A model generated the notes under the pieces. It saw only the letters and a program-made list of their open reading frames with translations. It did not search any database and was not told where the DNA came from. DNA of 30,888 nt. Origin: a virus. The position numbers and the translations under genes are program-made. This document shows, in pieces, positions 32-30,166 of this stretch (positions are counted from its first letter, which is position 1; the number at the start of each line of letters is the position of its first letter). Location of the stretch: positions 1-30,888 of the IMG/VR virus record IMGVR_UViG_3300044568_000266. One strand, 5' to 3'.

Positions 32-577
32 ATGATTTCAAAACCACACCCCGCATTTGGTTATGTCATTTTTAGAACATATATGTTAGCTGGAGAAACG
101 CTTAATGATGACCTTATGACAAATAACGTTATGGTTGTCTCACAACAAACTACTCCTACTGATCACGGCAAATCAGGTAATACAGGAAAGCAATATATTT
201 TTTATATATTAAGTGGTAAACATGAGTATAAAAATAAAGAAACTGGAGAAACACACACGTTTAGTCGTGGGTATTGTTCTTTAGAACAAGGATTACCAGT
301 TGGGTCTTACGACGCTAAGTTTTTGGAATCTGGCGATTTTTTATGCTTTAATACCTACGCAGCAAATAAAGATAAACTTTTACCTCCGCTAGAAGTTTTT
401 AAATTAGAAGCTGGTAAGTCAACTACGCTACCTAAAGGTATTAAATTATTTCTTGCGGAAGGGTTACTAACTGTTGACAACACAACTGTACCAAGCATGA
501 AGCAGATTAAAGTAGTTAATGAAGATAAAATTGCCACGGCTGTTAGCGATTGCTATGGACTTATTTTTAAAAACTAA
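32..577 (+). CDS. Cupin-like hypothetical protein, first gene of oxygenase/desaturase cassette
   Basis: This 181-residue protein has no signal peptide or membrane segment. I do not recognise the family with certainty. Its pattern is that of a beta-barrel of the cupin type: residues about 55-110 alternate short beta strands with glycine turns (YIFYILSGKHEYKNKETGE, then FLESGDFLCFN). A second similar stretch follows at about 125-178 (LEAGKSTTLPKGIKLFLAEG), so it could be a two-barrel or one long-barrel protein. No clear metal-binding histidine set is conserved enough to call it an enzyme. A good Shine-Dalgarno supports the start. Its 3' end overlaps the next oxygenase-like gene, and it shares that cassette's low GC. 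An enzyme partner, sugar-binding or purely structural role are all possible; function is unknown. Confidence 0.6.
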   Translation: MISKPHPAFGYVIFRTYMLAGETLNDDLMTNNVMVVSQQTTPTDHGKSGNTGKQYIFYILSGKHEYKNKETGETHTFSRGYCSLEQGLPVGSYDAKFLESGDFLCFNTYAANKDKLLPPLEVFKLEAGKSTTLPKGIKLFLAEGLLTVDNTTVPSMKQIKVVNEDKIATAVSDCYGLIFKN

Positions 578-1103
578 TAAGCGTTTTGAGTTAGATAAAA
601 TTCTATTTAATTTAAATCCGTCTGACGTTATAGAAGAATACAAAATTCCTCAGAAATATGGTTTGGCGCTAAAAAAGAAACAAGACTTTATATCAGTGCC
701 TAATATATTGTATAAAGTTGAAGAGCGTATTAAAGAAATAGTGTATGAACAGTTGCCTAGTAGTTTGCTTGCTGTAGAGAACCCTACCGTTAAATTATTA
801 ACGGTAACCCCGACAAGTAGTAATGAGTCTACGATGTTAGCACCGCATGTTGATATAGGCAGAAAGTGCTGTTTAAACATCTACATCAATACTCATGCAG
901 AACGTACTATTTATTATGAGTACAAAGCTGGGAAGGTGGAAGAGGTATCAAGTTTTATTGCGAGTGATGGAGAATGTTGGTTAATAGATGTATCAAAGCC
1001 ACATGCTGTTTTGCTATCCCCACCTCATATTAGAAAGGCGGTTACTGTTTCTTTTGTATCTACCCCATACGAAGAAGTAGTTAAACATTTTTACAATGGA
1101 TAA
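555..1103 (+). CDS. 2OG-Fe(II) oxygenase-like protein (first of four)
   Basis: This 182-residue protein, counted from the ATG at 555, looks like a small soluble 2-oxoglutarate/Fe(II)-dependent dioxygenase. The expected metal and co-substrate residues are in order and well spaced: H98-x-D100 (APHVD), a distal H150 (SKPHAV) and R160 ten residues later, which would bind the 2OG carboxylate. The strands between them (CCLNIYINT, RTIYYEY, KAVTVSF) fit the double-stranded beta-helix fold. The substrate cannot be read from sequence. A longer reading starts at the ATG at 519. I prefer 555 because 519 would overlap the upstream gene by 59 bases, but neither start has a strong ribosome site. The gene overlaps the desaturase downstream by 8 bases. 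Confidence 0.68.
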   Translation: MDLFLKTNKRFELDKILFNLNPSDVIEEYKIPQKYGLALKKKQDFISVPNILYKVEERIKEIVYEQLPSSLLAVENPTVKLLTVTPTSSNESTMLAPHVDIGRKCCLNIYINTHAERTIYYEYKAGKVEEVSSFIASDGECWLIDVSKPHAVLLSPPHIRKAVTVSFVSTPYEEVVKHFYNG

Positions 1104-1818
1104 AAATTTATTTGTTATAACCCCTAACTGGCAAACTATTATAAATATTGTTGCGCTATTGTTTTCAGCACATGGGGTTTACATGCTATCCAGCGGGGAG
1201 TCATTATGGTGGATAAGTTTGTCGTTTATTGTGTACTCTGTATTTAATATATCTGTAACTGCCGGGTTTCATCAGTTATTTACACATAGGTCTTATTCAT
1301 GCAATAAATTTTGGGAGTACTTGTTTACGATATGTGGAACATTAGCATTTCAAGGGAGTTCAATATCTTGGGTGCATTTACATTACGTACACCACAATAC
1401 TTCTGATACGGCGGAAGACCCACATGTAAGAAGTTTATGGTTTTTTATATTTAAGAAATACAACAGCGTTATTGTTAAGCCTAGTAAGAATGTAATGACG
1501 CTGTTAAAAGACCCCGTGCATAAAGCGTTGCATACGTATGGTGGATTGTTATGTGTTTTATTTAGCGTTGTACTATATTTAATAGACTATAGGCTGTTTG
1601 TTTTTGGATACATGTTGCCGGTGGCGTATTTTTATTTAGCTGTATCTTGCCATCAAATATTTACCCATATTGGTAATAAACCTGTAGACGTACCGTTTTT
1701 TATATTACTGTTTCCTTGGGCTGACTGGAACCATGTTAAGCATCATGAGCGCCCGTCGGATATAAAAGATGGCGGATGGTGTCTAAGTTATGAATTTATT
1801 AAACTGATAAAAAAATGA
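1096..1818 (+). CDS. Membrane fatty-acid desaturase (acyl delta-9 type)
   Basis: This 240-residue integral membrane protein carries the complete three-box histidine signature of the acyl desaturase family: HQLFTH at 59-64, HYVHH at 96-100 and HVKHH at 213-217. A further histidine-bearing segment (CHQIFTHIG, about 185-193) sits where stearoyl-CoA desaturases have their extra iron ligand. Hydrophobic spans at about 15-33, 38-57, 74-91, 147-165 and 167-188 fit a bilayer enzyme. The family uses a di-iron centre and O2 to insert a cis double bond into a saturated acyl chain. It is short beside typical bacterial members of about 270-320 residues, but no motif is missing. Being carried by a phage and coupled on both sides to oxygenase genes (8- and 4-base overlaps) suggests altering host membrane lipids during infection; that role is inference. 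Confidence 0.9.
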   Translation: MDKNLFVITPNWQTIINIVALLFSAHGVYMLSSGESLWWISLSFIVYSVFNISVTAGFHQLFTHRSYSCNKFWEYLFTICGTLAFQGSSISWVHLHYVHHNTSDTAEDPHVRSLWFFIFKKYNSVIVKPSKNVMTLLKDPVHKALHTYGGLLCVLFSVVLYLIDYRLFVFGYMLPVAYFYLAVSCHQIFTHIGNKPVDVPFFILLFPWADWNHVKHHERPSDIKDGGWCLSYEFIKLIKK

Positions 1819-2402
1819 ATGAGTTATTAGAAAAACATGGCGCGTTACATGTAACAAAGTTAATGCAACCAGATTTTTATAAGTTTTTTACACATGTGTT
1901 GATGCGTCAAGCAGATTTAAACCCTCGTGGAGACGCTCAAATACCAAACGCTAAATCTATTCTTGATCACGAATATATGTTTGAGACGTTGCATGAATTA
2001 TATTGGCATGTAATAGAGAGCGTAGTAGGCGAAGAATTAATACCAACTTATGCGTATGCAAGGCTTTATAGTAATGGCGACGTTCTAGAAAAACACACAG
2101 ACCGTCCTGCATGTGAAGTTAGTGTAACTATACAACTTGGAAGATCACATCATTATGCTTGGCCTATCTATATGGGCGGTATGCGTTTTGATATGGCAGA
2201 AGGTGACGGAGTTATTTATAAAGGTTGCGACATAGAGCATTGGCGAGACAAGTGCGACGGTCCTGATGGCTATTATTCAGGGCAAGTGTTTTTACATTAT
2301 GTACGTAAGAATGGACCTTATGCTTCTGAAGCTGGGGACTCCACAATTCGTGATGTGTTTTCTTACATAAAAAATAGAACAGAGTTAATGGGGAATAAGT
2401 GA
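1815..2402 (+). CDS. 2OG-Fe(II) oxygenase-like protein (second of four)
   Basis: This 195-residue soluble protein has a 2OG-Fe(II) oxygenase pattern. The stretch YARLYSNGDVLEKHTDRP gives H94-x-D96, followed by the strand EVSVTIQLG and a distal histidine at 142 (DIEHWR). No arginine or lysine sits at the usual position 9-11 residues after H142. R144 or residues of the later strand SGQVFLHYV may serve the co-substrate instead, so the 2OG pocket may differ from that of the neighbours. Similar small oxygenases are frequent in aquatic phages. The ATG lies inside the ATGA overlap with the desaturase stop, so translation is probably coupled. The substrate is unknown. Confidence 0.72.
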   Translation: MNELLEKHGALHVTKLMQPDFYKFFTHVLMRQADLNPRGDAQIPNAKSILDHEYMFETLHELYWHVIESVVGEELIPTYAYARLYSNGDVLEKHTDRPACEVSVTIQLGRSHHYAWPIYMGGMRFDMAEGDGVIYKGCDIEHWRDKCDGPDGYYSGQVFLHYVRKNGPYASEAGDSTIRDVFSYIKNRTELMGNK

Positions 2403-2887
2403 TTGTAATTATTGATGATGTTCTACCTGAAGATAAAAGGATAGGGGTTAAAGATTACTTTTCTTCTTCTCCAAAAGTTAGAACAAATCATTGGCATAGC
2501 GGTACATTTAATAATTTTTTAACTGATAATTCCCCATTAAGTGATTTAGTAAAGTACGCAGCTAGGTTTATAGATATACGAAATATGGTTGGTTGTGAAT
2601 ATTGGGGGCATTATCAATCAAAACCTAATTGGCACATTGATATAGATGAAAAATTGCAAATAAAAACAGGTGAGATTAGTTTGCCTTTATGTGTAATTGT
2701 TTATTATCCAATAATTGAAAATCTAGTAAGCGGTAACTTTGTAACAGAAACAGAAATTATTGTACCTAAAACTAACAGGATGCTTATTATGTCTCCGGGT
2801 ATACGTCACATGGTTGAAGATTATAGTGGGGTTCGTATGTCAGTAGCTGTGAATATATGGGATTACGTTCTAGAGGAATTTAAATGA
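2399..2887 (+). CDS. 2OG-Fe(II) oxygenase-like protein (third of four), GTG start
   Basis: This 162-residue protein starts with GTG inside a GTGA overlap with the previous stop. Its fold pattern and residues match a minimal 2OG-Fe(II) oxygenase: H79-x-D81 (NWHIDID), a distal H137 (GIRHMV) and R146 nine residues later (SGVRMSVAVNIW). The strand LPLCVIVYYP lies between them. It is close to the smallest size at which the double-stranded beta-helix can be complete. It ends in an ATGA overlap with the next oxygenase, placing four translational couplings in a row. It is the last gene of the AT-rich part of the cassette. Confidence 0.66.
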   Translation: MIVIIDDVLPEDKRIGVKDYFSSSPKVRTNHWHSGTFNNFLTDNSPLSDLVKYAARFIDIRNMVGCEYWGHYQSKPNWHIDIDEKLQIKTGEISLPLCVIVYYPIIENLVSGNFVTETEIIVPKTNRMLIMSPGIRHMVEDYSGVRMSVAVNIWDYVLEEFK

Positions 2888-3486
2888 TTTATCCAATCCC
2901 ACCAAGAAATTTTAACGGCAAAGACAGCCTTGCGTTTTGGGAAGGGTTTCTTACGCCGGAGGATATTAATTTAATCCTAGCCCAACCAGAGTGGCTGAAG
3001 CTGCAAGAGGGCTGCGTTGGTGGAAGCAGTAATACTTCTGTGGTCGATACTACTATTCGCGCCAGTCAAGTATCATGGATTGGCGCTAAACCAGAACTAC
3101 AGCCAATATGGGAAAAATTTTCTGTTGCTGTTGCGGAAGTAAATAGTCGGTTTTTTCATTTTGATTTGACTGGGTTCCATGAGCCGATGCAGCTTGGACT
3201 ATATACCGAACAGCAACAAGGACACTATGATTGGCATACAGATGCAGCGCCTTCGGATAAAAGTGTTCCTAGAAAACTATCATTGGCGATGCTGTTATCT
3301 GATCCGTCTGAGTTTGAAGGTGGCGAATTTCAAGTTAAAACAAGTAATGACGATGTGCAAACATTAGAAACAAAACGAGGTCGAGCGTGGTTTTTCCCAT
3401 CTTACACCTTACATAGAGTTGCCCCAGTAACAAAAGGTGTGCGTCGCTCGTTAGTATTATGGGTAGGTGGCCCACAGTTTAGATGA
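2884..3486 (+). CDS. 2OG-Fe(II) oxygenase, prolyl-4-hydroxylase/PKHD-like (fourth of four)
   Basis: This is the clearest oxygenase of the set, 200 residues long. The motif HYDWHTD gives H118-x-D120, the strand RKLSLAMLLSD is followed by the acidic turn FEGGEFQ, and the distal H177 (YTLHRV) is followed by R187/R188 (GVRRSLVLWV). This is the layout of the prolyl 4-hydroxylase-like 2OG-Fe(II) family (PiuC/PKHD-type), which is often seen in T4-like and marine phages. Such enzymes couple decarboxylation of 2-oxoglutarate to hydroxylation of a substrate that cannot be inferred here. Its base composition is noticeably higher in GC than the five genes before it and matches the structural genes, so it may be an older resident of this genome. 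Confidence 0.88.
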   Translation: MIYPIPPRNFNGKDSLAFWEGFLTPEDINLILAQPEWLKLQEGCVGGSSNTSVVDTTIRASQVSWIGAKPELQPIWEKFSVAVAEVNSRFFHFDLTGFHEPMQLGLYTEQQQGHYDWHTDAAPSDKSVPRKLSLAMLLSDPSEFEGGEFQVKTSNDDVQTLETKRGRAWFFPSYTLHRVAPVTKGVRRSLVLWVGGPQFR

Positions 3487-5327: not shown

Positions 5328-7466
5328 ATGCCATTACAACAGCTACAGTTTCGTCCGGGTATAAACAGAGAGGGAACCACACTTGCTAACGAGGGCGGTT
5401 GGTATGACTGCGACAAGGTGCGGTTTCGTTCTGGCTTTCCGGAAAAAATTGGCGGCTGGTCTGCCCTATCCTATAACACTTTTCAAGGTGTATGCCGCTC
5501 TCTTTGGAACTGGGTAACACTAAAACAGTCTAACCTTTTAGGCGTTGGTACAAATTTAAAGTTTTATATAGAGAGTGGTGGTGCGTACTACGACATTACC
5601 CCCATTCGACTTAGCACGACTAATACTACTACGTTTGCTGCAACGAACGGATCAACAACTATTACTGTAACTGATACCACAACATCTAATTTACAGACGG
5701 GGGATTTTGTTACTTTTTCTGGGGCGGTTAGTCTTGGTGGGGTAATAACAGCGGCTATTCTTAATTCAGAGTTTCAAATCCAGTCCATCCTTTCAGGCAC
5801 CTCGTACACCATAACTTCTTCTGTTGCAGCTAATGCTTCTGACGTTGGGAATGGCGGGGCTAATACCGATGCTGCTTATCAGATTAGTGTTGGCCCTTCT
5901 ATTAATACAGTTGGTACTGGGTGGGGCATATCCCCGTGGGGGGGTTTTATTCCCGGTTCTACGTCGTCTACATTGAACGGCGCAATAAACAACTCCGTAA
6001 CAACTATCACTGTAGTAAGCACTTCCGCGTTTACAGCATCCGGAGCTATATGGATCAATGGCGAATACATAACGTATAGCGGTAAGACTGCAACCGACTT
6101 TACAGGTTGCGTTCGCGGTGCAGACGGTACAACAGCGGCATCTCAGCTTTCTGGTGCAGTAGCATCACAAGCTACAGCGTTCCCCGGCTGGGGTGAAGCC
6201 TATAATAGCTCAAGCGTTCCAATAGAGTTACGCCTCTGGAGTCAGGCGAACTTTGGCGAAGAGTTATTATTTTCACCGCGTGGCGGCGCTCTTTACTTGT
6301 GGCAACCCGGCTCTGGCATAACACCTGCATTTGGTACAAGAGGTGTTTTAGTGTCTGGCACAGATGTGCCAGCGTTTATTAATCAGATCATGGTGTCTGA
6401 CACCTCACGGATTGTTATCTGTTTTGGATGTAACGACTACGGTTCTTACGGTGCAACCCCTATAGACCCTTTACTTATTCGCTGGACAGCACAAGAAAGC
6501 TATACAAACTGGACTCCGGCAATAACAAACCAAGCAGGTAGCTATCGTCTATCTCACGGCTCTACAATTGTTGGTGCTTTGCAAACCCGTCAAGAAATTG
6601 TGGTATGGACAGATGCTGCTATTTATTCCATGCAGTACCTTGGACCACCCTACATATACGGATTTAATCTTTTGGCGGATAATATTTCTATTGCGTCGCC
6701 TAATGCTATGGCTACGGCTAACGGAGTTGTGTACTGGATGGGTGTGGACAAGTTCTACATGTACTCTGGTCGGGTTGAGACATTGCCTTGTTCGGTACGT
6801 ACGTTTGTATTCCAAGATATTAATCGTGAGCAGTTTTCGCAGTTTTTTGCTGGCACTAATGAAGGTTACTCTGAAATCTGGTGGTTCTACTGTTCCGCAA
6901 ACAGCGATGTGGTGGATCGCTACGTCATCTTTAATTACTTAGACCGTGTGTGGTATTACGGATCATTAGCACGTACTGCTTGGTTAGATTCACCGCTACG
7001 TGATTTTCCACAAGCAGCAACCACTGAAAACATTATTGTGTTCCACGAAGCAGCAGTGGACAACGGCGAGACTAATCCTCCTAGTGCTATTAGTTGCTAT
7101 GTGCAGTCCTCAGACTTTGATATTGGTGACGGGCATAACTATGGGTTTGTCTGGCGTATTGTTCCGGATATTACGTTTGATGGGTCTAACACCGCAGGTG
7201 CCACAAGTGATAAGCCGATGGTAAACTTTACTGTGCGCCCGCGCCAGAACCCCGGTTCAAACTACGGCACTGCGGATAGTCCCACGGTAACCTCTACGCA
7301 GAGCTACGCTGGGCAGACTACCTATAACGTGCAGCAGTTTACGGAAATTGTTTACACCCGCATCCGTGGTAGACAGATGGCGTTTAAGGTGGAGTCCAAC
7401 ACGGTTGGTACTCAGTGGCAGCTTGGTGTGCCGCGTATTGATACTCGTCCGGATGGCAGAAGATAA
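5328..7466 (+). CDS. Tail hub/DNA-stabilisation structural protein (P22 gp10-like)
   Basis: This 712-residue structural protein opens with LQFRPGINREGTTLANEGGW, a start shared by many podophage proteins annotated as tail or packaged-DNA stabilisation proteins. Two Thr/Ser-rich beta inserts are visible: about 98-190 (TNGSTTITVTDTTTSNLQTG) and about 215-290 (INGEYITYSG, then TGCVRGADGT). The second is a turn motif often reused in phage tail proteins. The rest (320-640) is rich in Trp, Tyr and beta strands, as in a propeller-like hub. It is the first gene after the lysis set and starts the late virion block. The structural role is solid; the exact position in the tail is inferred. Confidence 0.72.
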   Translation: MPLQQLQFRPGINREGTTLANEGGWYDCDKVRFRSGFPEKIGGWSALSYNTFQGVCRSLWNWVTLKQSNLLGVGTNLKFYIESGGAYYDITPIRLSTTNTTTFAATNGSTTITVTDTTTSNLQTGDFVTFSGAVSLGGVITAAILNSEFQIQSILSGTSYTITSSVAANASDVGNGGANTDAAYQISVGPSINTVGTGWGISPWGGFIPGSTSSTLNGAINNSVTTITVVSTSAFTASGAIWINGEYITYSGKTATDFTGCVRGADGTTAASQLSGAVASQATAFPGWGEAYNSSSVPIELRLWSQANFGEELLFSPRGGALYLWQPGSGITPAFGTRGVLVSGTDVPAFINQIMVSDTSRIVICFGCNDYGSYGATPIDPLLIRWTAQESYTNWTPAITNQAGSYRLSHGSTIVGALQTRQEIVVWTDAAIYSMQYLGPPYIYGFNLLADNISIASPNAMATANGVVYWMGVDKFYMYSGRVETLPCSVRTFVFQDINREQFSQFFAGTNEGYSEIWWFYCSANSDVVDRYVIFNYLDRVWYYGSLARTAWLDSPLRDFPQAATTENIIVFHEAAVDNGETNPPSAISCYVQSSDFDIGDGHNYGFVWRIVPDITFDGSNTAGATSDKPMVNFTVRPRQNPGSNYGTADSPTVTSTQSYAGQTTYNVQQFTEIVYTRIRGRQMAFKVESNTVGTQWQLGVPRIDTRPDGRR

Positions 7467-7468
7467 CT

Positions 7469-7783
7469 ATGTCCACAGGAACTACAAGAAATCCGTCGCT
7501 ACCACTCGCCCCCGTCGAATATGACCGGACGTATATAGATACAGTACACAATATCCTACGGCAATATTTTATCCAGCTGGATAATCCCGGCTCCAGCGCA
7601 GCATCCACTAGCCGCCCTGATGCTAATACAGTAATAGCTGCTTTGAACTTCAGTCAGGTGAACCCAATTACGGGGTTACGCGAAATAAGCTGCCCAACAC
7701 AAGTAGAGTACGCTGCGGGTAAGTTAAGAACTGGGGATATTTACTACGATACGTCTACGTATGTTCTTAAGATTACACCATAA
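7469..7783 (+). CDS. Small structural-region hypothetical protein
   Basis: This 104-residue protein has no membrane segment. Residues 15-45 (EYDRTYIDTVHNILRQYFIQLDN) form a likely helix with a pattern common in small podophage proteins beside tail genes. The C-terminus (GKLRTGDIYYDTSTYVLKI) is a beta hairpin resembling tail-fibre attachment pieces. It begins two bases after the tail-hub stop, and the GNAT gene begins on the base after its stop. It is probably a minor virion or chaperone component; function unknown. Confidence 0.6.
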   Translation: MSTGTTRNPSLPLAPVEYDRTYIDTVHNILRQYFIQLDNPGSSAASTSRPDANTVIAALNFSQVNPITGLREISCPTQVEYAAGKLRTGDIYYDTSTYVLKITP

Positions 7784-12673: not shown

Positions 12674-15600
12674 ATGCCAACACCTGTTGATTACGATCCA
12701 TTTGCTAAGTCAGCATTAAAAGCCACGCCGGTTGATTACGACCCTTTTGCAAAAAAGAAAGCGCCTGAGGATCGTGGGTTAGGTACGGTACTTACCGATA
12801 CTGCTATTGCTGTAGCTAGTGCTGCGGCTGGTGGCGTTAAGTCGGCTTCTGATTTTGTATCGCCAAGTAATTCTTTTTCTAATGCTGTTGACTCGCTTAT
12901 TAAAAAAGGCGAATCATATGAGAGTGATGTCGTTAAAGCAGCAAAAGAAAAGTATGCTAAAGATATGGAGAACGCTAAGTCCGTCATGGACGAAGTCGCT
13001 ATTACTGCCAAGTACATTAAAGACAATCCACTTCAATCTGCTGCTATGGCGGTTGGCTCTTTTGCAGGTCCCGGCTTAGCTATTAAAGGCGCAGCCAAAG
13101 CTAGTCAATTACTAAAAGCGTCTGAAAAAGTTTCTTCACGTTTAGGTTTGGGTACAGGTATTGTTACTAGCTCAGCTATGTCTGGCGGTGACGCTGCGGG
13201 TAGTGCGTATGAGATGGTCATGCAAACGCCTAATGATGTTCTCATGCAGAATGATTTTATTAGAAGTCAGGTAGAAGGTGGGCGTAGTTTAGAAGACGTA
13301 AAGAAAGAAGCGGCTACTACCGCTGCTCGCCGTGCCTCTGTAGTCCCTGCTTTAATTGGTGGTGTTACTGGCGCGTTTGGTATGGAGCGCGTTCTGGCTG
13401 GTATGGGCGGTAAAGGAGCTAAGACTGCATTTGGTACTGCTATTAAGTCTGGTCTATCCGAAGCGTTCCAAGAAGCTGTTGAAGAAGGTGCGACTGAATA
13501 TTCAGGTCGTGCTGCTGCACAAGAGTACGACCCAAGCATAGACCCGATGAAAGGTGTAGCGGGTGCCGCTACGATGGGTGCAGCACTTGGCGCTATTCCG
13601 GGTGCAGGTATTGGTGTATTAGATGCACGTCGTCAGTTAGCAGAACAAGCTGCGCAAAAAGAAGCCGAAGCACAACAAGCATCGCAGACCGCAGAGCAAG
13701 CCGCTGCCGCTATCGTCCCACAAGCAGAACAAGTACAAGCGCAAGCACAGCAAGCCGACGCGCAAGCGCAAGCATTACCCTTTGGTATTGTTGACCCTAA
13801 TCAAGTTCAAGATGTATTAGATCAAGCTGGTCCTCAAGCTGAAGATAGAAGCCAAGACAATCTACTCAATGCTGAAGATCAGCTTAAACTTGGAGACATA
13901 AAAACCCAAATAGCTGCATACGAAGCTAAATTAGAAGCTAACGTAGATGAAAAAGGTAAGCCATTAGCCCCACGATATAGAGAAAATATAGAGGGCGTGT
14001 TAACTCGGCTTAGAGCTGAAGAGGAAAAATTAACAGGAGGAGTCGATGCCGAACAGCTTAGCAAATCTAACATCGAAGGAGATCAGTCTGGCGCTCCTCG
14101 CCTTGCACCAGCAGTGGACGAAACCGCCGGAGGAATTAAAACATCTAACGATAGTGGAGTGGTCACTGTTGGAGGGCCTACTGAATCAATTACTAGAACA
14201 GAAGGAGACCAGCGTAATGCACTAGCCGCTGAACAACAAGCCGCATTAGAAGCACAACGCTTAGCCGATGAACAAGCAGCATTAGCCGCAAGCCAAGTAG
14301 CCGTCAATAAAGAAGAGGAAAAAAATGTCGCTCAAGCCACTCAAGCCGTCAAAGCAGAAGAAAAAAGACAAAAGAAAGAACCCGCACCCGACAGGCCAGA
14401 GGTTGTGCAGCAACGAGCCACTCTTGAACGTCTCTTGCCAAAAACAATTGGTAAATTTACTTTAGAAACCATAACTCCATACGCCGGTAATTGGACTGTA
14501 AAATACGTCTCCACTAACGAAAGTGGCATGACCTTTTCGCAAAACGTACCTATTGACGCGGAGATGCTAGAAGGTAAAACAGATGCGGAAATAGAAGCAG
14601 CAATTCGTGAAAGAGCGACAAAAAACGGATTACGTGAACCCGCACCCACACCCGCACCCGCAGTAAATGTAAAAGGGTTTAAGAAAGAACACATGCCTTA
14701 CGTTCAGGCAGAGGTAGAAACCCGCGCAGCTGAACCTAAAAGTATGAAAGAAGCCCAGCAATATGCGGCGGCAGAATCTGCTTTTGATTCGTTTGATGTA
14801 GCAGAGTTAGTATTAAATAGAGAGTTTAAGGAAGAGATTGCTAAAAGAAATAAAGCGGCAAGGGATGAATATAATAAAAATAAAAAGCTAGGCTTGCCTG
14901 TTGAAGCGCCTAATCCTATAGAACTACACGACATCCTAACTGAGATGACTGTAGAAGATCGCATAAAAGCAATTGAAGCCGCTGAAAAATTAGGAGAGCT
15001 AGATACTCAAAAACGTAAAAACCAAAAAAATGAACGCGAGAAGTTTATTAAATCACTGTCACAAAAAGAACAAGATGCTATTGCAGCAAATACTAAAAAA
15101 ATACTTCATCAAGAAATTAAGTCTTTATCTAAGCTAGGCAAGAAAACAGCTTCACAAATACGTAAAGAACGTACAAAGGCTAGTACCGGCACGTCGGTTG
15201 CCACTGCCAAGAAGGGTGAGTCTAAACCTGTTCAAGCTGTTAAGGTAGAAAAGAAAACTGACAGTGAAAACATAATTGATAGACAGACTGTAGAGTCGTT
15301 AAAGACCGGTAACACTGACGAGATACTACGTACTATTGAGAAGGGTTATACCGACCCTGCGACTAAAGCATTTGCAACCCGCATTAAAGCTGTTGTGTCC
15401 CAATTTGGGATTCAGCCAAAAATTGTTATTGGTAAAGTAGAAGGCAACCGTCCCGGTAGTTATGACGGCGAGACCGACACTATTACTATTGATCCAGATG
15501 CACCACGCGGTGTGCAATTAGATGTTGTAGTCCTGCATGAGTACGGACACTTCCTGACTGACCGGATAATAGATAACCCAGAGAACCTGACACCGTCACA

Positions 15601-18600
15601 GAAGATAGCATTAGATAATCTTAAGAAGCTGCACACCTACGTAAAAGCTGAATTAGGTAAACAGTATGAGATAGACACGCTTAAAGAGTTTGTTGCTCAG
15701 TCGTTTACTAACTCAGAGTTTGCCGTCGCTATGGGGAACCTACCCCCACAGAGTAATGTCCTTAAAGTACAGAACGCGCTTAAAGAATTTGCTACACGCA
15801 TAATGCAGTTGCTTGGATTTAAATCCGGTGACAGTACTCTATCTCAGACGTTAGAAAACGTACAAAGTATCCTTACTGGTTCATATAAAGATGGAGCTAA
15901 GACTCCGGGCAAGGCTAAAGGCGTCTCATACATGAGTGAGCCTAAGAAAGCTGAAGAAGAGCCTAAACCTTTGTCATGGGAAGAATTTAAAAAAGCGCAG
16001 CGTCTGCCTGAAGCGCCTAAAGGAGCATTTAAATCATTACGTGAATTTGGTTTTAGTAAAAAATTCTTTAAACGATTGGCTACTAATTTCCAAAACGAAC
16101 GCTATGAGATGAAAGATTTAGAGCGCGAACTAACTCGTTCTGGTTTATTAGTAGTGGGCGACGAAAAGAAATTTAATAACCTGTACACACAGACTACTTT
16201 AGCGGCGGGCAACTACCGCACTATCGACAACACAGAACTAAAGCCTATTACGAATAAAGTTTATTCGTTGATACAAGAGCTTATGGAAAAGTCTGGAAAA
16301 GATTTTGATGTCGTACTTCAAGATTTATCCGCTTATGGTATTGCACTGCATGAGAGTGAAGTACGCCAAGTTAAATTCTTGCGTAAGATAAAGTTACGTG
16401 ACGACATCAACACTGTAGAGTGGGATGGTAAGAAAATATCTCCAGCCACAGCCAAAGCTAGAATCTTTGAAGAGCTTACCTCTAAGAACTTTGCAACCGT
16501 AGCTAAGAGCTACGGCATGACGCCTGAGAAGCTTGCGAAAGAATACCGTAAGTTGCTTGAGAAAATTGTTTCCGTAGATACTAATATCCATCCAGACGTT
16601 AGCAAAGAGCAACGCAGCCCTGATCATTTTGACTACAATGTGGTTGGTAATTTGACGCCTGAAACTGTAAAAGGGTATTTAGAAGAAGCTAATAAAGACA
16701 AGAACAAAGACTTGATGGACAAAATCTTAAAAGAGATGAGCGATCTGTCGAAGAAAACAATTGAACTTAATAAAGAAGCTAACTACTGGTCGCCACAAGT
16801 ATCTAACCTGACAAACTTCTATGGCTACGAAAACTATGTGCCGTACAAAGGTAAATTAGTAAACGAAAAAGATAAGAACCTTTTCTTAGGTGAGTACTTA
16901 GGCAAAGAATATCAACAAGCTGAATACACACAGGAAGGTCGTGTGTCATTGCCTGACAACCCCGTCTTGCAGATGTTTGCAGAAGCGCATTTGGCTGCCG
17001 CTCGTGCTGGTCGTAAAGATGTTTTAAAGTCTATTTACCACATGGTACAACCTAATGAACTATATAAAGATGGTCAGGGTTTAATAAATGCAGAGGTTAA
17101 GAAGATCATTGCGTTTGAAGATAGATATAACTTTGAAGCTAATATAGAACTTCAGAAACTAGCACGCCGTGAAAACATGTTCTTCTACTACATGGAGAAC
17201 GGTGACATTGCAGTTATTGAAATGAAAGACGACGCGCTACGTGACGCTATACGTAAGACCTACCGTCAATCTAATCCAATACTAGACACTCTTAATATGA
17301 TTAATAGTGGCATTGGTCAGATGCACACCCGCTATAACGTAGCGTTTGCTCCTAAGAACTTCGTGCGTGACGCTTTAACTAACGCCTATAACATAAGCGC
17401 AGGATATTCAGTTAAAGCTGCGGGCCGTTATATGGGTGCAATAGCAGAGAATGTAACTCGTGTTGGTCTACTTCATGCCGGTAAAGTAGCTTCTGCTTAT
17501 AACAAAGGCGGCGCTGACCCAGCTAAGAACCCTGCTATGAAAAAACTCATAGACGCAGACAAGTCTGGGTTTACAGCTATGCTGGCTGAATACTTACAGT
17601 ACGGTGGCGACATTGCTTACGTCAGTAGTTTAACTACTAAAGGACAGCTAAGAGACTTTAGTAAAGAGTTAGGTAGATCAGGGAAGGCAAGTGCCACTAA
17701 AGAGGCGATAGAAGGTTTCTTTGATTCATGGACTTCCGCATTTGAATTTACTAGCCGCGCATCTGCTTATCAGATTATGAAAGCGGAAGAAGTAGGACGC
17801 TTAATGGAGAAGGGTTTAACTCGTGCGCAAGCAGAGAAAGACGCTATTAAACCTGCTGTAGCTGCTGTTAAGAACCTAGCTAACTTTGAAGAGGTAGGAC
17901 GCTTTGGTAAGGTAGCTGGTGCATGGTTCATGTTCTTCCGTCCTGCTGCAACGGGCGCTGTGCGTGCTATCGAATCATTGGCTCCTGCATTAGCTTCTAT
18001 AAAGGGTGGTTATAAGGCTGCGGCTGAACGCTCATGGAATGAAGCGCCAAAAAATATAAGAGATAAAGGTAGTAAAGAAGAGTACATAAAGAATTTTGTT
18101 AAAGAAGCAGAACGGGGTAAAACTATTGCTGCTATTGCTATAAGTGTAGGCTCTGCTATATACCTGATGTCTTACTTTACTGCTGGTGATGATGAGATGG
18201 GACGTAACCGTGTAGGTACGGATGACATGTCTCGTTGGCAGCGTGACGCTAGGTTTGTTGTTGGCGATGGTCCAAACGATATAGTTAACTTACCTTGGGG
18301 TTACGGCATTGGTGCATTGGCTGCGCTCGGCGCTCAGATTACTTCTTTAGGTATGTCTGATACATCGTTCTTAGAGGTGATGGCTAACGCTGTACCTATC
18401 ATGATGGACTCGTTCTTACCTATACCTGTATCTAAAGGTAGCCCTGTTGAAAATCCAGCTAATTATCTAATAGATAGTATTGCACCTAGCTTTTTACGTC
18501 CTATTGTTGAGTTCACTATGAACCAGAATAGTCTTGGGCAAGATATCTATAATAAACGTCAGGGTCCTAACGGTAATATTTATACTGGTGGCGATAATGT

Positions 18601-19150
18601 TCCTCAGGCTTATAAGGACGCGTCGACATTTTTGTATGAAGTATCAGACTTTAATTTGCCGATGAATCCTAACGTAGCATACTTCTTTGTTAACTCGTAT
18701 GTTGATGCAATAGGTAAAGCCGTAGAAACTGGGTACAACTTATATTTATTTGGGTCTGGGCAGAAAGACTTTAATCTTAAAACAGACACAGCAGTACTGA
18801 ACGGTATGATAGGTGTTAAATCTAATTACGATGCCCGTAAATGGTCAGCGATTGAAAAGGATATGGAAAAACGCAAGATGCGTTTAAAAGAGATTGAAGA
18901 TACAAATGACCCAGAGCTTTATTACAAATATCTAGAAGCTAATCCACTTGATGATATGTTAATAGATATGTATAACGGCGATGTAGGAGGCGAATTAAAA
19001 GCGTTACGTACGGAAGCGCAACAAATACGTAGAGACCGAACGCTCGACATGAAAACTAAAAAGCTATTATTAGATTCTACTAAGCTAGAAGAAAATTTAG
19101 TTAAGGTGCAGTTAGTTAATATGTACAAAGCGTTTGGAGTTAACCCTTGA
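12674..19150 (+). CDS. Giant ejection/polyvalent virion protein with zinc-metalloprotease motif and LPD38-like region
   Basis: At 2158 residues this is the largest gene here. TPVDYDPFAK occurs twice at the N-terminus (3-12 and 18-27). Residues 40-330 hold Gly/Ala-rich amphipathic helices that could insert in membranes, and 330-870 are Ala/Gln/Lys/Glu-rich coiled coil. H955-E-Y-G-H959 in DVVVLHEYGHFLTD is the HExxH zinc-protease signature, embedded in beta strands (TITIDPD). The region from about 1545 to 1900 (FAPKNFVRDALTNAYNISAG; AWFMFFRPAATGAVRA) resembles the LPD38 domain of phage large polyvalent proteins. A hydrophobic helix lies at about 1812-1835. It probably travels in the virion and enters the host with the DNA, like T7 gp16. 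The start has a GGAG site. Its 3' end overlaps the convergent minus-strand gene by 11 bases. Confidence 0.75.
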   Translation: MPTPVDYDPFAKSALKATPVDYDPFAKKKAPEDRGLGTVLTDTAIAVASAAAGGVKSASDFVSPSNSFSNAVDSLIKKGESYESDVVKAAKEKYAKDMENAKSVMDEVAITAKYIKDNPLQSAAMAVGSFAGPGLAIKGAAKASQLLKASEKVSSRLGLGTGIVTSSAMSGGDAAGSAYEMVMQTPNDVLMQNDFIRSQVEGGRSLEDVKKEAATTAARRASVVPALIGGVTGAFGMERVLAGMGGKGAKTAFGTAIKSGLSEAFQEAVEEGATEYSGRAAAQEYDPSIDPMKGVAGAATMGAALGAIPGAGIGVLDARRQLAEQAAQKEAEAQQASQTAEQAAAAIVPQAEQVQAQAQQADAQAQALPFGIVDPNQVQDVLDQAGPQAEDRSQDNLLNAEDQLKLGDIKTQIAAYEAKLEANVDEKGKPLAPRYRENIEGVLTRLRAEEEKLTGGVDAEQLSKSNIEGDQSGAPRLAPAVDETAGGIKTSNDSGVVTVGGPTESITRTEGDQRNALAAEQQAALEAQRLADEQAALAASQVAVNKEEEKNVAQATQAVKAEEKRQKKEPAPDRPEVVQQRATLERLLPKTIGKFTLETITPYAGNWTVKYVSTNESGMTFSQNVPIDAEMLEGKTDAEIEAAIRERATKNGLREPAPTPAPAVNVKGFKKEHMPYVQAEVETRAAEPKSMKEAQQYAAAESAFDSFDVAELVLNREFKEEIAKRNKAARDEYNKNKKLGLPVEAPNPIELHDILTEMTVEDRIKAIEAAEKLGELDTQKRKNQKNEREKFIKSLSQKEQDAIAANTKKILHQEIKSLSKLGKKTASQIRKERTKASTGTSVATAKKGESKPVQAVKVEKKTDSENIIDRQTVESLKTGNTDEILRTIEKGYTDPATKAFATRIKAVVSQFGIQPKIVIGKVEGNRPGSYDGETDTITIDPDAPRGVQLDVVVLHEYGHFLTDRIIDNPENLTPSQKIALDNLKKLHTYVKAELGKQYEIDTLKEFVAQSFTNSEFAVAMGNLPPQSNVLKVQNALKEFATRIMQLLGFKSGDSTLSQTLENVQSILTGSYKDGAKTPGKAKGVSYMSEPKKAEEEPKPLSWEEFKKAQRLPEAPKGAFKSLREFGFSKKFFKRLATNFQNERYEMKDLERELTRSGLLVVGDEKKFNNLYTQTTLAAGNYRTIDNTELKPITNKVYSLIQELMEKSGKDFDVVLQDLSAYGIALHESEVRQVKFLRKIKLRDDINTVEWDGKKISPATAKARIFEELTSKNFATVAKSYGMTPEKLAKEYRKLLEKIVSVDTNIHPDVSKEQRSPDHFDYNVVGNLTPETVKGYLEEANKDKNKDLMDKILKEMSDLSKKTIELNKEANYWSPQVSNLTNFYGYENYVPYKGKLVNEKDKNLFLGEYLGKEYQQAEYTQEGRVSLPDNPVLQMFAEAHLAAARAGRKDVLKSIYHMVQPNELYKDGQGLINAEVKKIIAFEDRYNFEANIELQKLARRENMFFYYMENGDIAVIEMKDDALRDAIRKTYRQSNPILDTLNMINSGIGQMHTRYNVAFAPKNFVRDALTNAYNISAGYSVKAAGRYMGAIAENVTRVGLLHAGKVASAYNKGGADPAKNPAMKKLIDADKSGFTAMLAEYLQYGGDIAYVSSLTTKGQLRDFSKELGRSGKASATKEAIEGFFDSWTSAFEFTSRASAYQIMKAEEVGRLMEKGLTRAQAEKDAIKPAVAAVKNLANFEEVGRFGKVAGAWFMFFRPAATGAVRAIESLAPALASIKGGYKAAAERSWNEAPKNIRDKGSKEEYIKNFVKEAERGKTIAAIAISVGSAIYLMSYFTAGDDEMGRNRVGTDDMSRWQRDARFVVGDGPNDIVNLPWGYGIGALAALGAQITSLGMSDTSFLEVMANAVPIMMDSFLPIPVSKGSPVENPANYLIDSIAPSFLRPIVEFTMNQNSLGQDIYNKRQGPNGNIYTGGDNVPQAYKDASTFLYEVSDFNLPMNPNVAYFFVNSYVDAIGKAVETGYNLYLFGSGQKDFNLKTDTAVLNGMIGVKSNYDARKWSAIEKDMEKRKMRLKEIEDTNDPELYYKYLEANPLDDMLIDMYNGDVGGELKALRTEAQQIRRDRTLDMKTKKLLLDSTKLEENLVKVQLVNMYKAFGVNP

Positions 19151-26674: not shown

Positions 26675-28546
26675 TTAACACTCTCCATAACTATGCCCGT
26701 ATTTAGCCTCACACGCAACAGGTAAAGTAGCCGCCCACGACGGTGGCGTAGACATCTTCTCAATAATGAAACTCATCGCTTCGTCTTTGACTGCTTCTGG
26801 TACAACGATCACCGCTGCGTCATGTACTGTCAGGACAACTCTATAGCGTTCATTGATTGCCAACATCTGTTCGCCTACAACTATTCTAGCTAACGCTTGG
26901 ACTACATTCTCAACTACTGCGCCGCCCCAAATACTTATCTCGCCCTTACGTGACTTGTATTTATATTGGGACTTCTCACCTTCTGTATCGAACCGTAGCT
27001 TTGGGTAGCGAATCAATAGATCGTTCGGCAGGTATATACCTTCGCCTGTCACCTGTAATACTTTATGCTCGCCTAGATAATATGGGTCGCTCTTTTCATC
27101 CCAATTGCATATCTCTTCCAACGCCTTATCACAGTCCTTCCATAGATTAATAATATCGCTGTTAACATCTCGATAAAGATTTACTATAGCCTGACATTCT
27201 TCATCATCTATCACAGCTCCGGGGGGTTGTGTCTTTAGCGTGTGCTGTAACTTTCTCCAGCCAGTGCCATAACCCAATCCCAACACGCAAGTCTTACCAA
27301 CGAATCGTTCAACCGGATTAGCTTTCGTTATCGTGCGGTTATAGACTTTGGAAGCAAAGATCGAATATACATCCTGATTTGCCGCGAATTGTTGAACAAC
27401 ATCGTCTTGTCCTGCCAACCAAGCCAACACCCGTGCCTCAATTTGGGACGAATCGCAGTTAATGACCACATAGCCATCTGGGGGTAGAACGGCGTTCTTG
27501 AGGGCTTTCTTCTTTTTATCTCTGCTAGGTAAGTTCTGGAAGTTAACCTTGTCACTACCACTCCATCGTCCAGTATGTGCGCCGTAATATTTAAGTGGGA
27601 TGGGGAGTAAACCTTTGTTTCGCTTTCCAATGTCGATGAATCTACTAATTCGAGATTCTTCCAAAGTTGATTTAGTACCAAGTCTGACAGCGCATAACTG
27701 TTGGATGAATGTATCTTCGTGTTCCGACAATGAAATAAAACCTTCGTCGTTCTTTGCCAAAGCAAATGTTTCTTTTCCTGTTGTCGGGCTGACTTTTGTT
27801 GGCGGTGTAATCCCATGCTCCGTAAGAAGTCCTGCAAACTGTTTATTACTCGCCAACTTCTTCCTAACAGCTTCTTCATCATCGCATTTGAGCCTTTCTT
27901 TTAATGTTGATAGAAGATCATGCTTCTCTTGTTTGAGTTCTTCTAATCGTTCAACTAGCAACGCATCATCGACCTTAAACGCCGGGAATATGAACATCCT
28001 TAGCGTCATATCAATAAGTTTTATCTCATCGGCAGGGAAGTTCGGTGCCATCAAATGAAACAACTTGTATGTCAACTCAACGTCGTTCTTGCAATACTCA
28101 CCATACTGTTTAAGATCAGCCGCCGCAAAGTCCTCTAGCTTCTTACCTTTAGCATCTTCAACTTCTGTACCTTTCTTACCTATCTCATATCTTTCAGCCA
28201 ACGCTGCAAGACTTCCACCCGCATCAACGCCATGAAGCGCACGAGCCATGCTTAATGTATCTAAAAGGAACGCGGGCTTGATACCGAACCGCCACGCTAA
28301 TATCGCACCATCAAAGAGAGTGTTATGACATAGCAACGCCGCATCCGACCAATCGGTTAGTTCTGTCAGCTGTTTTTTAATTTCCTCATGCGTACCTGTA
28401 ACCCAGCGTGCCGGTTCATCATCGACTTTAACGCCAACGCCGATCTCTTGAAAGCGTTTGTCACGGATGTACTCTTCGGTCGTCATAGTACGAAAGCCAA
28501 AGTCCTGTGCGTAGTACGTCTCGTAATCTAGTGTTATAAGACTCAT
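26675..28546 (-). CDS. Family A DNA polymerase with 3'-5' proofreading domain
   Basis: This is a 623-residue replicative polymerase. The exonuclease domain spans about 1-165: LDYETY (D7, E9), CHNTLFDG (N75, D79) and YCKNDVE (Y151, D155). The polymerase palm and fingers show motif A VINCDSSQIE (D365), motif B R414-x3-K418-x7-Y426-G427, and motif C TVHDAAVIV (H575, D576). The residue equivalent to E. coli Pol I Phe762 is Leu422. The residue after the motif C aspartate is Ala, where Glu is usual. No inserted DnaJ-like cysteine repeat, as reported for HMO-2011, is present. The gene overlaps the gene upstream by four bases and copies the phage genome together with the primase-helicase. Confidence 0.95.
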   Translation of the reverse strand: MSLITLDYETYYAQDFGFRTMTTEEYIRDKRFQEIGVGVKVDDEPARWVTGTHEEIKKQLTELTDWSDAALLCHNTLFDGAILAWRFGIKPAFLLDTLSMARALHGVDAGGSLAALAERYEIGKKGTEVEDAKGKKLEDFAAADLKQYGEYCKNDVELTYKLFHLMAPNFPADEIKLIDMTLRMFIFPAFKVDDALLVERLEELKQEKHDLLSTLKERLKCDDEEAVRKKLASNKQFAGLLTEHGITPPTKVSPTTGKETFALAKNDEGFISLSEHEDTFIQQLCAVRLGTKSTLEESRISRFIDIGKRNKGLLPIPLKYYGAHTGRWSGSDKVNFQNLPSRDKKKKALKNAVLPPDGYVVINCDSSQIEARVLAWLAGQDDVVQQFAANQDVYSIFASKVYNRTITKANPVERFVGKTCVLGLGYGTGWRKLQHTLKTQPPGAVIDDEECQAIVNLYRDVNSDIINLWKDCDKALEEICNWDEKSDPYYLGEHKVLQVTGEGIYLPNDLLIRYPKLRFDTEGEKSQYKYKSRKGEISIWGGAVVENVVQALARIVVGEQMLAINERYRVVLTVHDAAVIVVPEAVKDEAMSFIIEKMSTPPSWAATLPVACEAKYGHSYGEC

Positions 28547-29010
28547 ACTGCTCTTACCTCTTTACTCTTCTTAGACTTCTTAGTAACGATCTCATCTAGC
28601 TCGTTGATGATTGCTGCTGTCTCTCTGTCTAATAGATTGATCTGCTTCTTCCATTTAATCAACGTGTGTTGCATTTCTGTGAGTAGTTGTTCTTTTAAAT
28701 CAATGTCCTCAAGTACATCTACCATCATGCGATAGCCGCCACCTGCTACTTGGTCTGCATTGAAACTAACGAACGCACGAATAGGAACATCAGGTGCTTT
28801 CTCTATAGTTACCGTACACTTTTGTATGAGGGAACGCGCTTGCATCCTTCTAAACGACTCTGCCGCTTTTGTGTCATCCCATTGAAAGTGCTTGTGCAAA
28901 ATACACTTTGGGTCTCTCGCAACGCTTAAGACATCCTCTACCATCAGTACACCGCCTGATTGCTTCGCTAGTTTTTCTAAAAACTTACGTTCTACTTTCA
29001 TGTTATCCAT
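28543..29010 (-). CDS. Conserved hypothetical protein upstream of DNA polymerase
   Basis: This 155-residue soluble protein contains HFQWDDTKAAESFRRMQAR (about 41-59), a beta stretch PIRAFVSFNADQVAGGGYR, and a C-terminal coiled coil ending in Lys/Ser-rich KKSKKSKE. I recall a 'HFeWDD.kAAe..R..qAR' pattern from many phage proteins encoded next to DNA polymerase, with no assigned role. AGGAGAG lies six bases before the ATG, at the downstream edge of the G-rich repeat array. Its four-base overlap with the polymerase gene suggests coupled translation. Confidence 0.72.
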   Translation of the reverse strand: MDNMKVERKFLEKLAKQSGGVLMVEDVLSVARDPKCILHKHFQWDDTKAAESFRRMQARSLIQKCTVTIEKAPDVPIRAFVSFNADQVAGGGYRMMVDVLEDIDLKEQLLTEMQHTLIKWKKQINLLDRETAAIINELDEIVTKKSKKSKEVRAV

Positions 29011-29032: not shown

Positions 29033-29489
29033 CCTGCCTGACCCTGCCCTGCAACACCATACCTAATCGAGCCATACCTGCCCTACCTCAACAAACACCA
29101 CCATAAAAGACCAAACCAAGCCACAACATACCTGCCTTACTTAACCAGACCGGAGCGAACCTAACAACACCAAGCCGAGCCAAGCCCAACCTGCATTTCC
29201 GAACCAAATCGCACCGCATCGCACCATACCCCATCAAACCTCGCCTGTACTGACCTGCGTTGCCAAACCAAACCCCACCGCACTCGACCGAACCATACCG
29301 CGACGAACGAAGCCCCACCTGCCATACCGAACCGAACCGTACCGTGACCAACCTTATCGCACATTAACGAACCAAGCCCCACCTGCATGACCAGACCACA
29401 CCTTACGTTGCCCCGCCTTACCGCCCCCACCTGCCAAACCAAACCGGAGCTTGCCCGAACGAACCGGAACCCACCAAGCCCCGCCTGCC
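29033..29489 (-). repeat. Two-level G-rich pentamer array (NNNGG)n with GCAGG cores
   Basis: This non-coding stretch lies between two genes of the minus-strand operon. On the transcribed strand it is a degenerate run of five-base units, mostly ending GG (TTCGG, TATGG, TTTGG, CTTGG). It is interrupted by GCAGG cores, seen as CCTGC on the plus strand at 29033, 29043, 29048, 29077, 29131, 29190, 29254, 29318, 29382, 29430 and 29484. Distances between cores are 10, 5, 29, 54, 59, 64, 64, 64, 48 and 54. From 29048 onward, all but the 48 equal a multiple of five plus four, so each core resets the pentamer phase by one base. GG runs three bases apart could form two-tetrad G-quadruplexes in RNA or DNA. 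Role unknown. Confidence 0.85.
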
Positions 29490-29500
29490 TAGTTATTCTC

Positions 29501-30166
29501 TTACTTAATAGAGAACTTCTTTAGAACATCTTTCTGTTGATCATCTGGCACAACTTCAAACGTACCAAACCCACAACCTGCCGATGATTTTGAATCCGGA
29601 CGACCCTCGCATAATCCAACTTGTCCACCCACACGAGCGACCAAGTTATATACGTCTTGCGCCGAAAATTGATCCATGTCGTAACGAACTCTTAGCTTAC
29701 AAGCCCACTCACGATACATAGGACGTGAACGTACATCCACTACACCTGTCGCATTACGAGTATGTGCTGTGTATGTTTCACTCTTGCCATAGATACGCAC
29801 TAACGGAATACCGTCTTGAACGTCATAGCCGTCTGCTTCCACAAACGTGGACAACTTAGCAAGCGTCATCTTAAATCCTACTAAGCGACACGCACTAATC
29901 ATGCCCGCACGAAACGCTGCTGCGTTAACACCTTCCCACTTCTCACCACTACGATAACGTGCTTCTTCGGCTTCTTTATCGTAATCACGGGCGTTACGCA
30001 CCTTCTTATTTTTAGATGCGCCACCTTCAGCCATCTTCGCCATCAACTCAGCTTTCTTACTGAATCGAGCAACTACTAATGGTGCAGTACCTTGTAATAA
30101 AATCTCTAGCGTTGCGAATCTTGGTGCAGAGATAACTACTGACGTTTCTTTTACTTTCATGTCCAT
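29501..30166 (-). CDS. Conserved phage protein with glycine-rich C-terminal loop
   Basis: This 221-residue protein comes from the start of the replication unit. TAPLVVARFSKKAELMAKM near the N-terminus is followed by a basic disordered segment (50-72), a helix (NAAAFRAGMISACRLVGF), strands (RSRPMYREWACKLRVRYD, 147-163) and the loop GGQVGLCEGRPDSKSSAGCG (180-199). I recall this arrangement from hypothetical proteins in many phages. The opening PL motif and the glycine-rich loop recall RAMP/Cas7-type RNA-binding folds, but that is only a resemblance. AGGA lies eight bases before the ATG. The G-rich repeat array follows its stop. Function unknown; ssDNA or RNA binding is a fair guess. Confidence 0.68.
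   Translation of the reverse strand: MDMKVKETSVVISAPRFATLEILLQGTAPLVVARFSKKAELMAKMAEGGASKNKKVRNARDYDKEAEEARYRSGEKWEGVNAAAFRAGMISACRLVGFKMTLAKLSTFVEADGYDVQDGIPLVRIYGKSETYTAHTRNATGVVDVRSRPMYREWACKLRVRYDMDQFSAQDVYNLVARVGGQVGLCEGRPDSKSSAGCGFGTFEVVPDDQQKDVLKKFSIK

What the first reader, a model, noticed from the sequence alone, without database searches (positions are those of the whole stretch)
29033..29489. Hierarchical G-rich pentamer array with phase-resetting GCAGG cores inside the replication operon
About 457 bases are built from NNNGG pentamers on the transcribed strand. GCAGG cores are spaced 10, 5, 29, 54, 59, 64, 64, 64, 48 and 54 bases apart. Most spacings equal a multiple of 5 plus 4, so each core is followed by a four-base piece and the pentamer phase restarts. 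The sequence of the pentamers drifts while the spacing is kept, which suggests selection on geometry (GG every five bases, about half a helical turn) or on G-quadruplex-forming RNA/DNA rather than on exact sequence. It lies between the glycine-rich protein gene and the gene before the polymerase. Candidate roles are replication origin, recombination or pausing site, structured RNA, or nuclease barrier. No standard feature type explains it.
Basis: seen in the sequence. Interest (0 to 1): 0.8.

Follow-up and report, generated by a model that had tools for sequence, protein, structure and literature searches.

The report
Phage guide-RNA array (VIPR system)
The odd G-rich stretch is a set of about eight guide-RNA units of VIPR, a recently described phage weapon related to CRISPR; decoding such units from this phage's relatives shows that they point at DNA-replication genes of rival phages.

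Summary
On the minus strand, window 29033-29487 is built of YNNGG pentamers (GG autocorrelation at 5, 10, 15 and at 5n-1; 0 of 1000 shuffles) broken by GCAGG joints. All relatives with the flank intact carry such an array at the same place. The role guesses (origin, G-quadruplex, pausing site) are not supported. It matches VIPR (PMC13142463, 2026 preprint): a RAMP protein, Vipr, uses guide RNAs made of YNNGG repeats, whose NN pairs read DNA as NNxNNx. The upstream gene (29501-30166) is Vipr: its profile hits the solved SUSP1 Vipr (E 1.4e-6) and its model matches Csm3/Cas7. I tested the code: of 318 units from this phage family, 14 have matches at E<1e-3 with a 1-base skip, none with skips 0, 2 or 3, none after shuffling. 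Matches read in frame, skip base on the codon wobble, in rival phages' DNA polymerase motif A, Sak4 and SSB-like genes. A guide of the nearest relative matches a polymerase 24/24; the window's homologous guide (29194-29253) matches it 22/24. GCAGG joints bound the guides. Unlike SUSP1, no 3' tail separates them. Targets of the other window guides are unknown; expression and silencing were not testable.

The parts
29033..29487 (-). VIPR guide array (vrRNA units of YNNGG pentamers separated by CAGG joints)
   Evidence: GG autocorrelation; unit parsing; same array at this place in relatives; matches the YNNGG vrRNA described in PMC13142463
29434..29483 (-). unit 1, 10 pentamers, NN code GG TT GG CC TC CG AA CC TT TT
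   Evidence: no significant target in held loci
29386..29429 (-). unit 2, 44 bases, 9 repeats of which one is a 4-mer (indel)
   Evidence: the homologous unit in L002 is 5 bases (one repeat) longer
29322..29381 (-). unit 3, 12 pentamers, NN code GG TT TC AA GC AA TG AC AC TC TC AT
   Evidence: pattern scan gave only chance-level hits
29258..29317 (-). unit 4, 12 pentamers, NN code GG TT TC GC AT TC CG GC GG TT TT AA
   Evidence: no exact hit of a 20-base core or of an 18-position variant
29194..29253 (-). unit 5, 12 pentamers, NN code CA CA GA TT GG AT GC GC GC TT TC AA = Q Q E F G I A A A L S K/N: guide against motif A of family A DNA polymerases of other phages
   Evidence: 22/24 match to L275/L276 polymerase 'DWEQQEFAIAAALSKD', 21/24 to L091/L093 'DWSQQEFGIAAALSGD'; the homologous unit in L002 matches 24/24
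29135..29189 (-). unit 6, 11 pentamers
   Evidence: target unknown
29081..29130 (-). unit 7, 10 pentamers; replaced by a different unit in L002
   Evidence: target unknown
29052..29076 (-). unit 8, short, 5 pentamers, followed by clustered CAGG joints (29033-29051)
   Evidence: near-identical in L001 and L002, so possibly a fixed end element
29501..30166 (-). vipr: RAMP-fold guide-RNA-binding protein, 221 aa (phrog_4652)
   Evidence: profile hit to PDB 36pp_D 'SUSP1 Vipr protein' E 1.4e-6 and to SUSP1 gp39; model matches Csm3/Cas7 RAMPs, Foldseek E 1.3e-4, VIA Z 8.2
28543..29010 (-). candidate vap (Vipr-accessory protein), 155 aa (phrog_15946), directly 3' of the array
   Evidence: next to vipr in relatives and in cluster F mycobacteriophages; fold call inconclusive, best rows are DNA-binding regulators at E 0.07-0.4

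Best explanation
The locus is a VIPR system: vipr gene, array of about eight guide units, candidate vap gene, in one operon on the minus strand. Inferred working: the array is transcribed with the operon; each unit between two CAGG joints gives one guide RNA (vrRNA); Vipr subunits bind the GGY scaffold of each pentamer; the two free bases of each pentamer (NN) pair with double-stranded DNA, skipping one base per three, which falls on the wobble base of the target's codons. The bound complex silences the target gene of a rival phage in the same cell. Shown here: the array, the RAMP-fold protein related to a solved Vipr, the 1-base-skip code, unit borders = guide borders, and targets of several family members (DNA polymerase motif A, Sak4 annealing protein, SSB-like DUF669). 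Inferred from the preprint: RNA expression, complex formation, silencing.
For: Protein: profile of the 221 aa family hits SUSP1 Vipr, E 1.4e-6; fold is Csm3/Cas7. RNA: (CAGG)(YNNGG)n units in 513 distinct forms. Code: of 318 units not used to pick the test loci, 14 match at E<1e-3 with skip 1, 0 with skips 0, 2, 3, 0 for shuffled units (first run). NN dinucleotides of 276 units fit codon positions 1+2 (two-strand mix, divergence 0.015) far better than background (0.073) or the other codon frames. L002's unit matches DNA polymerase motif A 24/24. The first NN of a unit matches its target 1.30 of 2, neighbouring units 0.37 of 2 (chance 0.5), so joints bound guides. Self-avoidance: the window's own polymerase reads SSQIEARVLAWLAG there.
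Against: Only one window unit (29194-29253) has a plausible target, and its best match is 22/24, not perfect. Scans for two other window units gave nothing or chance-level hits. No 3' tail like that of SUSP1 vrRNAs is seen between units. The vap candidate has no significant similarity to SUSP1 gp38 and no clear fold match. No RNA data.
Confidence: 0.93

Rival explanations
1. The stretch is a G-quadruplex tract or another structured RNA/DNA element; GG every five bases makes two-layer quadruplexes with three-base loops that pause polymerases or regulate the operon.
For: The GG spacing suits two-layer quadruplexes with 3-base loops (sequence itself).
Against: It predicts no information in the NN bases, yet they fit codon positions 1+2 and match foreign coding sequences with 1-base skip only. 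RNA folding is no better than shuffles, z +0.81 (quadruplexes are not modelled there). It does not explain the RAMP gene next door.
Confidence: 0.03
2. Replication origin, partition or packaging site with iterons bound by a phage protein.
For: It lies in the replication gene block and consists of repeated units.
Against: Iterons keep their sequence; here each unit differs, units are swapped whole between close relatives, and the code test succeeds. Cluster F mycobacteriophages and a cyanophage carry the same array beside vipr in other genome settings.
Confidence: 0.02
3. Neutral satellite-like repeat spread by slippage and recombination, without function.
For: Unit copy number varies and some units are shared between phages.
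Against: Kept at the same place in relatives with Vipr identity down to 46% in the family alignment, and beside vipr in mycobacteriophages at about a third identity; NN bases carry target information far above shuffles.
Confidence: 0.01
4. A coding gene: two open frames (29088-29351 and 29161-29442, minus strand) encode a repetitive protein, as annotated for the equivalent stretch in mycobacteriophage Donkeykong (gp48).
For: Open frames of 87 and 93 codons exist; gp48 is annotated as a protein.
Against: A period of 5 is out of phase with codons, the 4-base joints shift frame at each unit, starts are TTG, no family match for gp48.
Confidence: 0.01

Closest known systems
VIPR of Escherichia phage SUSP1 (PMC13142463; PDB 36pp)
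   Same: RAMP-fold Vipr with detectable sequence similarity; YNNGG repeats; 1-base-skip code; phage-encoded; targets in competing phages' genes with the skip on the wobble base.
   Different: Here guides abut in one array with only a CAGG joint and no 3' tail between them (SUSP1 arrays read); array lies between vipr and the next gene; protein similarity is weak (31 bits); candidate vap not recognisably related.
Cluster F mycobacteriophages (Donkeykong, Saal, Pippy and others) and cyanophage Cy-LDV1
   Same: Homologs of vipr, of the adjacent gene in cluster F, and the same (CAGG)(YNNGG)n arrays where read (Donkeykong, Cy-LDV1).
   Different: In Donkeykong the array lies upstream of vipr and is annotated as protein gene gp48; in Cy-LDV1 there are two arrays, one on each side of the gene after vipr.
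CRISPR-Cas type III (Csm3/Cas7)
   Same: RAMP fold of the guide-binding subunit; array of different guides.
   Different: No constant repeats with contiguous spacers; recognition here is gapped; the gene neighbourhood read shows no cas genes (not searched exhaustively).

Membership tests
VIPR | vipr gene encoding a small RAMP-fold protein (~20 kDa) | tested here: met
   profile hit to PDB 36pp_D SUSP1 Vipr E 1.4e-6; SUSP1 gp39 31 bits; Csm3/Cas7 fold, Foldseek E 1.3e-4 and Z 8.2; 221 aa
VIPR | guide RNA genes of tandem YNNGG repeats, roughly 9-16 per guide | tested here: met
   window units of 10, 9, 12, 12, 12, 11, 10 and 5 repeats; family mostly 8-11
VIPR | NN bases specify DNA by the 1-nt skip rule | tested here: met
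   14 of 318 units at E<1e-3 for skip 1, 0 for skips 0, 2, 3 and 0 for shuffles; 24/24 match of L002's unit. Met for the family; the window's own best match is 22/24
VIPR | skip base falls on codon wobble in coding targets | tested here: met
   perfect matches translate in frame; NN composition fits codon positions 1+2
VIPR | adjacent vap gene, often a predicted DNA-binding protein | tested here: inconclusive
   a conserved neighbour gene exists; no similarity to SUSP1 gp38; best fold rows are DNA-binding regulators but weak
VIPR | guides expressed as small RNAs and bound by Vipr | not testable with these tools
   needs small-RNA sequencing and pull-down
VIPR type II (SUSP1 clade) | invariable structured 3' tail after each repeat tract | tested here: not met
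   units are separated by CAGG only, while SUSP1 guides carry a tail. Which of the seven published types fits could not be tested (supplement not held)
CRISPR-Cas | identical repeats alternating with spacers | tested here: not met
   no constant repeat longer than the CAGG joint between units

The most novel reading that the evidence does not exclude
A distinct tail-less VIPR architecture: guides are released from one compact precursor at GCAGG joints, and phages of this family, whose rivals occur in Burkholderiales contigs, draw on a shared, recombining pool of guide cassettes whose NN bases track variants of conserved replication genes (polymerase motif A, Sak4, SSB) of rival phages.
Probability: 0.45. 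Interest if true: 0.75.

Novelty: new member of a known kind. Interest (0 to 1): 0.62.

Why it matters
In the library searched, VIPR rests on one 2026 preprint. Here its code is recovered in a divergent phage lineage from sequence alone, with skips 0, 2, 3 and shuffled units as controls. It names natural targets (replication genes of rival phages), shows that close relatives exchange whole guides, and explains a class of odd GG-pentamer arrays, at least one of which is annotated as a protein gene in a mycobacteriophage. Targeting codon positions 1+2 of a catalytic motif would make synonymous escape useless, a directly testable point.

Tried and rejected
(1) Search of named phages with the DNA of the region: no match. 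(2) Target search within the VIPR-bearing relatives themselves: no excess at skip 1; the strong skip-3 hits came from the unmasked array copy L082. (3) Unit 4 scans: no hit. (4) Unit 3 scan: 36 hits, bases beyond the pattern match at chance level. (5) Unit 5, 16-base core: 21 hits, mostly chance, but several in polymerase motif A; a longer variant gave four, all polymerases. (6) Rfam: only two snoRNA-like matches below gathering score, outside the array. (7) RNA folding: no better than shuffles. (8) Promoter and terminator scans: at chance level. (9) Pfam and PADLOC: no useful match for Vipr or the neighbour. (11) All guides tested against the two polymerase-target phage records: only the polymerase site stood out. 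(12) The supplement of PMC13142463 was not available, so the VIPR type is not assigned.

Full report
What is there. The window is an IMG/VR virus record of 30,888 bases. The right-hand genes on the minus strand form a replication block: DNA polymerase A, helicase, primase/helicase, PD-(D/E)XK nuclease. Between a 221 aa gene (29501-30166) and a 155 aa gene (28543-29010) lies the reported stretch. Its GG steps recur at 5, 10, 15 and at 5n-1 bases, with none of 1000 dinucleotide shuffles reaching the counts, and GCAGG spacings are as reported.

Relatives. Protein searches of viral contigs gave 56 and 26 loci. Wherever the 3' flank is present, a comparable array stands at the same place, on the strand of the genes; in the loci read it ends just before the ribosome site of the 155 aa gene. 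Parsing gave 513 distinct units of the form CAGG(YNNGG)n, n mostly 8-11; position 1 is C or T in 87%, positions 4 and 5 are G in 88% each. Three loci with a 100% identical 221 aa protein (window, L001, L002) share some units, have lost or replaced others whole, and differ inside homologous units by point changes. Named relatives are cluster F mycobacteriophages and cyanophage Cy-LDV1; the two read (Donkeykong, Cy-LDV1) also carry such arrays.

The known system. A literature search found VIPR (PMC13142463, bioRxiv 2026): a RAMP protein plus guide RNAs of YNNGG repeats whose NN bases read DNA with one skipped base per codon. I treated this as a lead and tested it.

Test 1, the protein. A profile of the 221 aa family hits one solved chain, 36pp_D 'SUSP1 Vipr protein', E 1.4e-6 with the broad alignment, 9e-4 with the narrow one. 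SUSP1 gp39, read from its genome, scores the same 31 bits. The AlphaFold model (mean pLDDT 72.6) matches Csm3/Cas7 RAMPs (Foldseek E 1.3e-4; Z 8.2, 141 aligned, 4.0 A). The pLDDT is moderate and Z 8 alone would be weak; the sequence match carries the weight.

Test 2, composition. If NN pairs encode codon positions 1 and 2, their frequencies should show it. For 276 non-redundant units they fit a 60/40 mix of forward and reverse codon positions 1+2 of the window's genes (divergence 0.015), against 0.073 for background; the other codon frames fit far worse.

Test 3, targets. Guides were decoded with skips of 0, 1, 2 and 3 and compared with 197 held loci (1.71 Mb) that are not VIPR loci of this family. 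These loci had mostly been fetched with three guide patterns, so units resembling those patterns were left out of the count. Of 318 remaining units, 14 reach E<1e-3 at skip 1; none does at skips 0, 2, 3 or after shuffling NN order (first run). E-values assume equal base frequencies and units are partly redundant, so the contrast between skips and shuffles is the evidence, not the single E. The test loci are enriched for one group of rival phages, which raises the number of hits but does not favour one skip over another.

Targets in detail. GG TA GG AA GG TA GT GC, carried by L002 and several others, hits at least 120 viral contigs (scan stopped at its limit), in frame 'SIEDAGYGKGYVAALNLW' of a Sak4-like annealing protein (phrog_124, AAA_24). 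Of 80 loci listed, 37 match 5 or 6 of 6 further guide bases that were not in the pattern (chance 1.5). Another unit matches a DUF669/SSB-like gene 20/20. Contigs of bacterial genomes with the Sak4 target belong mostly to Burkholderiales, which hints at the host, no more.

The window's own guide. Unit 5 (29194-29253) decodes to Q Q E F G I A A A L S K/N, motif A of family A DNA polymerases. A scan with a relaxed form, two of its positions degenerate, gave four contigs, all polymerases. Two of them, identical in sequence here and so counted as one event, match L002's homologous unit at 24 of 24 bases, including two not in the pattern; the window's unit, which differs at two NN bases, matches 22. 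Two others have the Gly form and match the window 21/24. The window's own polymerase has a different motif there. Units in L008, L012, L014, L015 and L050 also point at this motif.

Borders. Scoring hits on inner pentamers only, the first NN of a unit matches its target at 1.30 of 2 bases, the last at 0.85, and the adjacent units at 0.37 (chance 0.5). So the GCAGG phase reset is the border between guides. The last pentamer is often YAAGG and may partly be a constant end.

Mechanism. Shown: array, RAMP protein, code, borders, targets for the family. Inferred from the preprint and not tested: transcription and processing, binding, and silencing of rival phages during co-infection. The neighbour gene is a candidate vap; its fold could not be assigned.

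Limits. Seven of eight window units have no identified target. The collections were scanned for exact patterns only. The published VIPR type could not be assigned, so I call this a new member of a known kind, with a tail-less layout that may or may not be among the published variants.

Noticed in passing
L084:4450-4836 (Mycobacterium phage Donkeykong gp48): An annotated 'hypothetical protein' gene of a cluster F mycobacteriophage is in fact a YNNGG/CAGG guide array upstream of a vipr homolog; other cluster F phages with vipr homologs may carry the same annotation error.
   Followed up: partly
L083:6621-6830 and 7427-7600 (cyanophage Cy-LDV1): Two guide arrays, one on each side of the gene that follows the vipr homolog, next to an excisionase gene.
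   Followed up: partly
L081:1461-1675 and 2826-3390: A divergent relative with arrays on both sides of the vipr and neighbour gene pair; joints often read CACCGCAGG.
   Followed up: no
window 29033-29051: Clustered CAGG joints after a short 5-repeat unit, nearly identical in L001 and L002; possibly a fixed end of the array.
   Followed up: no
L052:2699-3322: The vipr homolog region, read straight through, contains two in-frame stops, so this copy may be broken or mis-assembled.
   Followed up: no
window 12674-19150: A 2158 aa protein with weak similarity to virion RNA polymerase, endolysin and DarB-like families; likely an injected virion protein.
   Followed up: no
window 519-3486: Several small ORFs that look like 2-oxoglutarate/iron oxygenases and a fatty-acid-desaturase-like protein lie side by side, by eye from the translations; the desaturase-like one had no PHROGs hit.
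   Followed up: no
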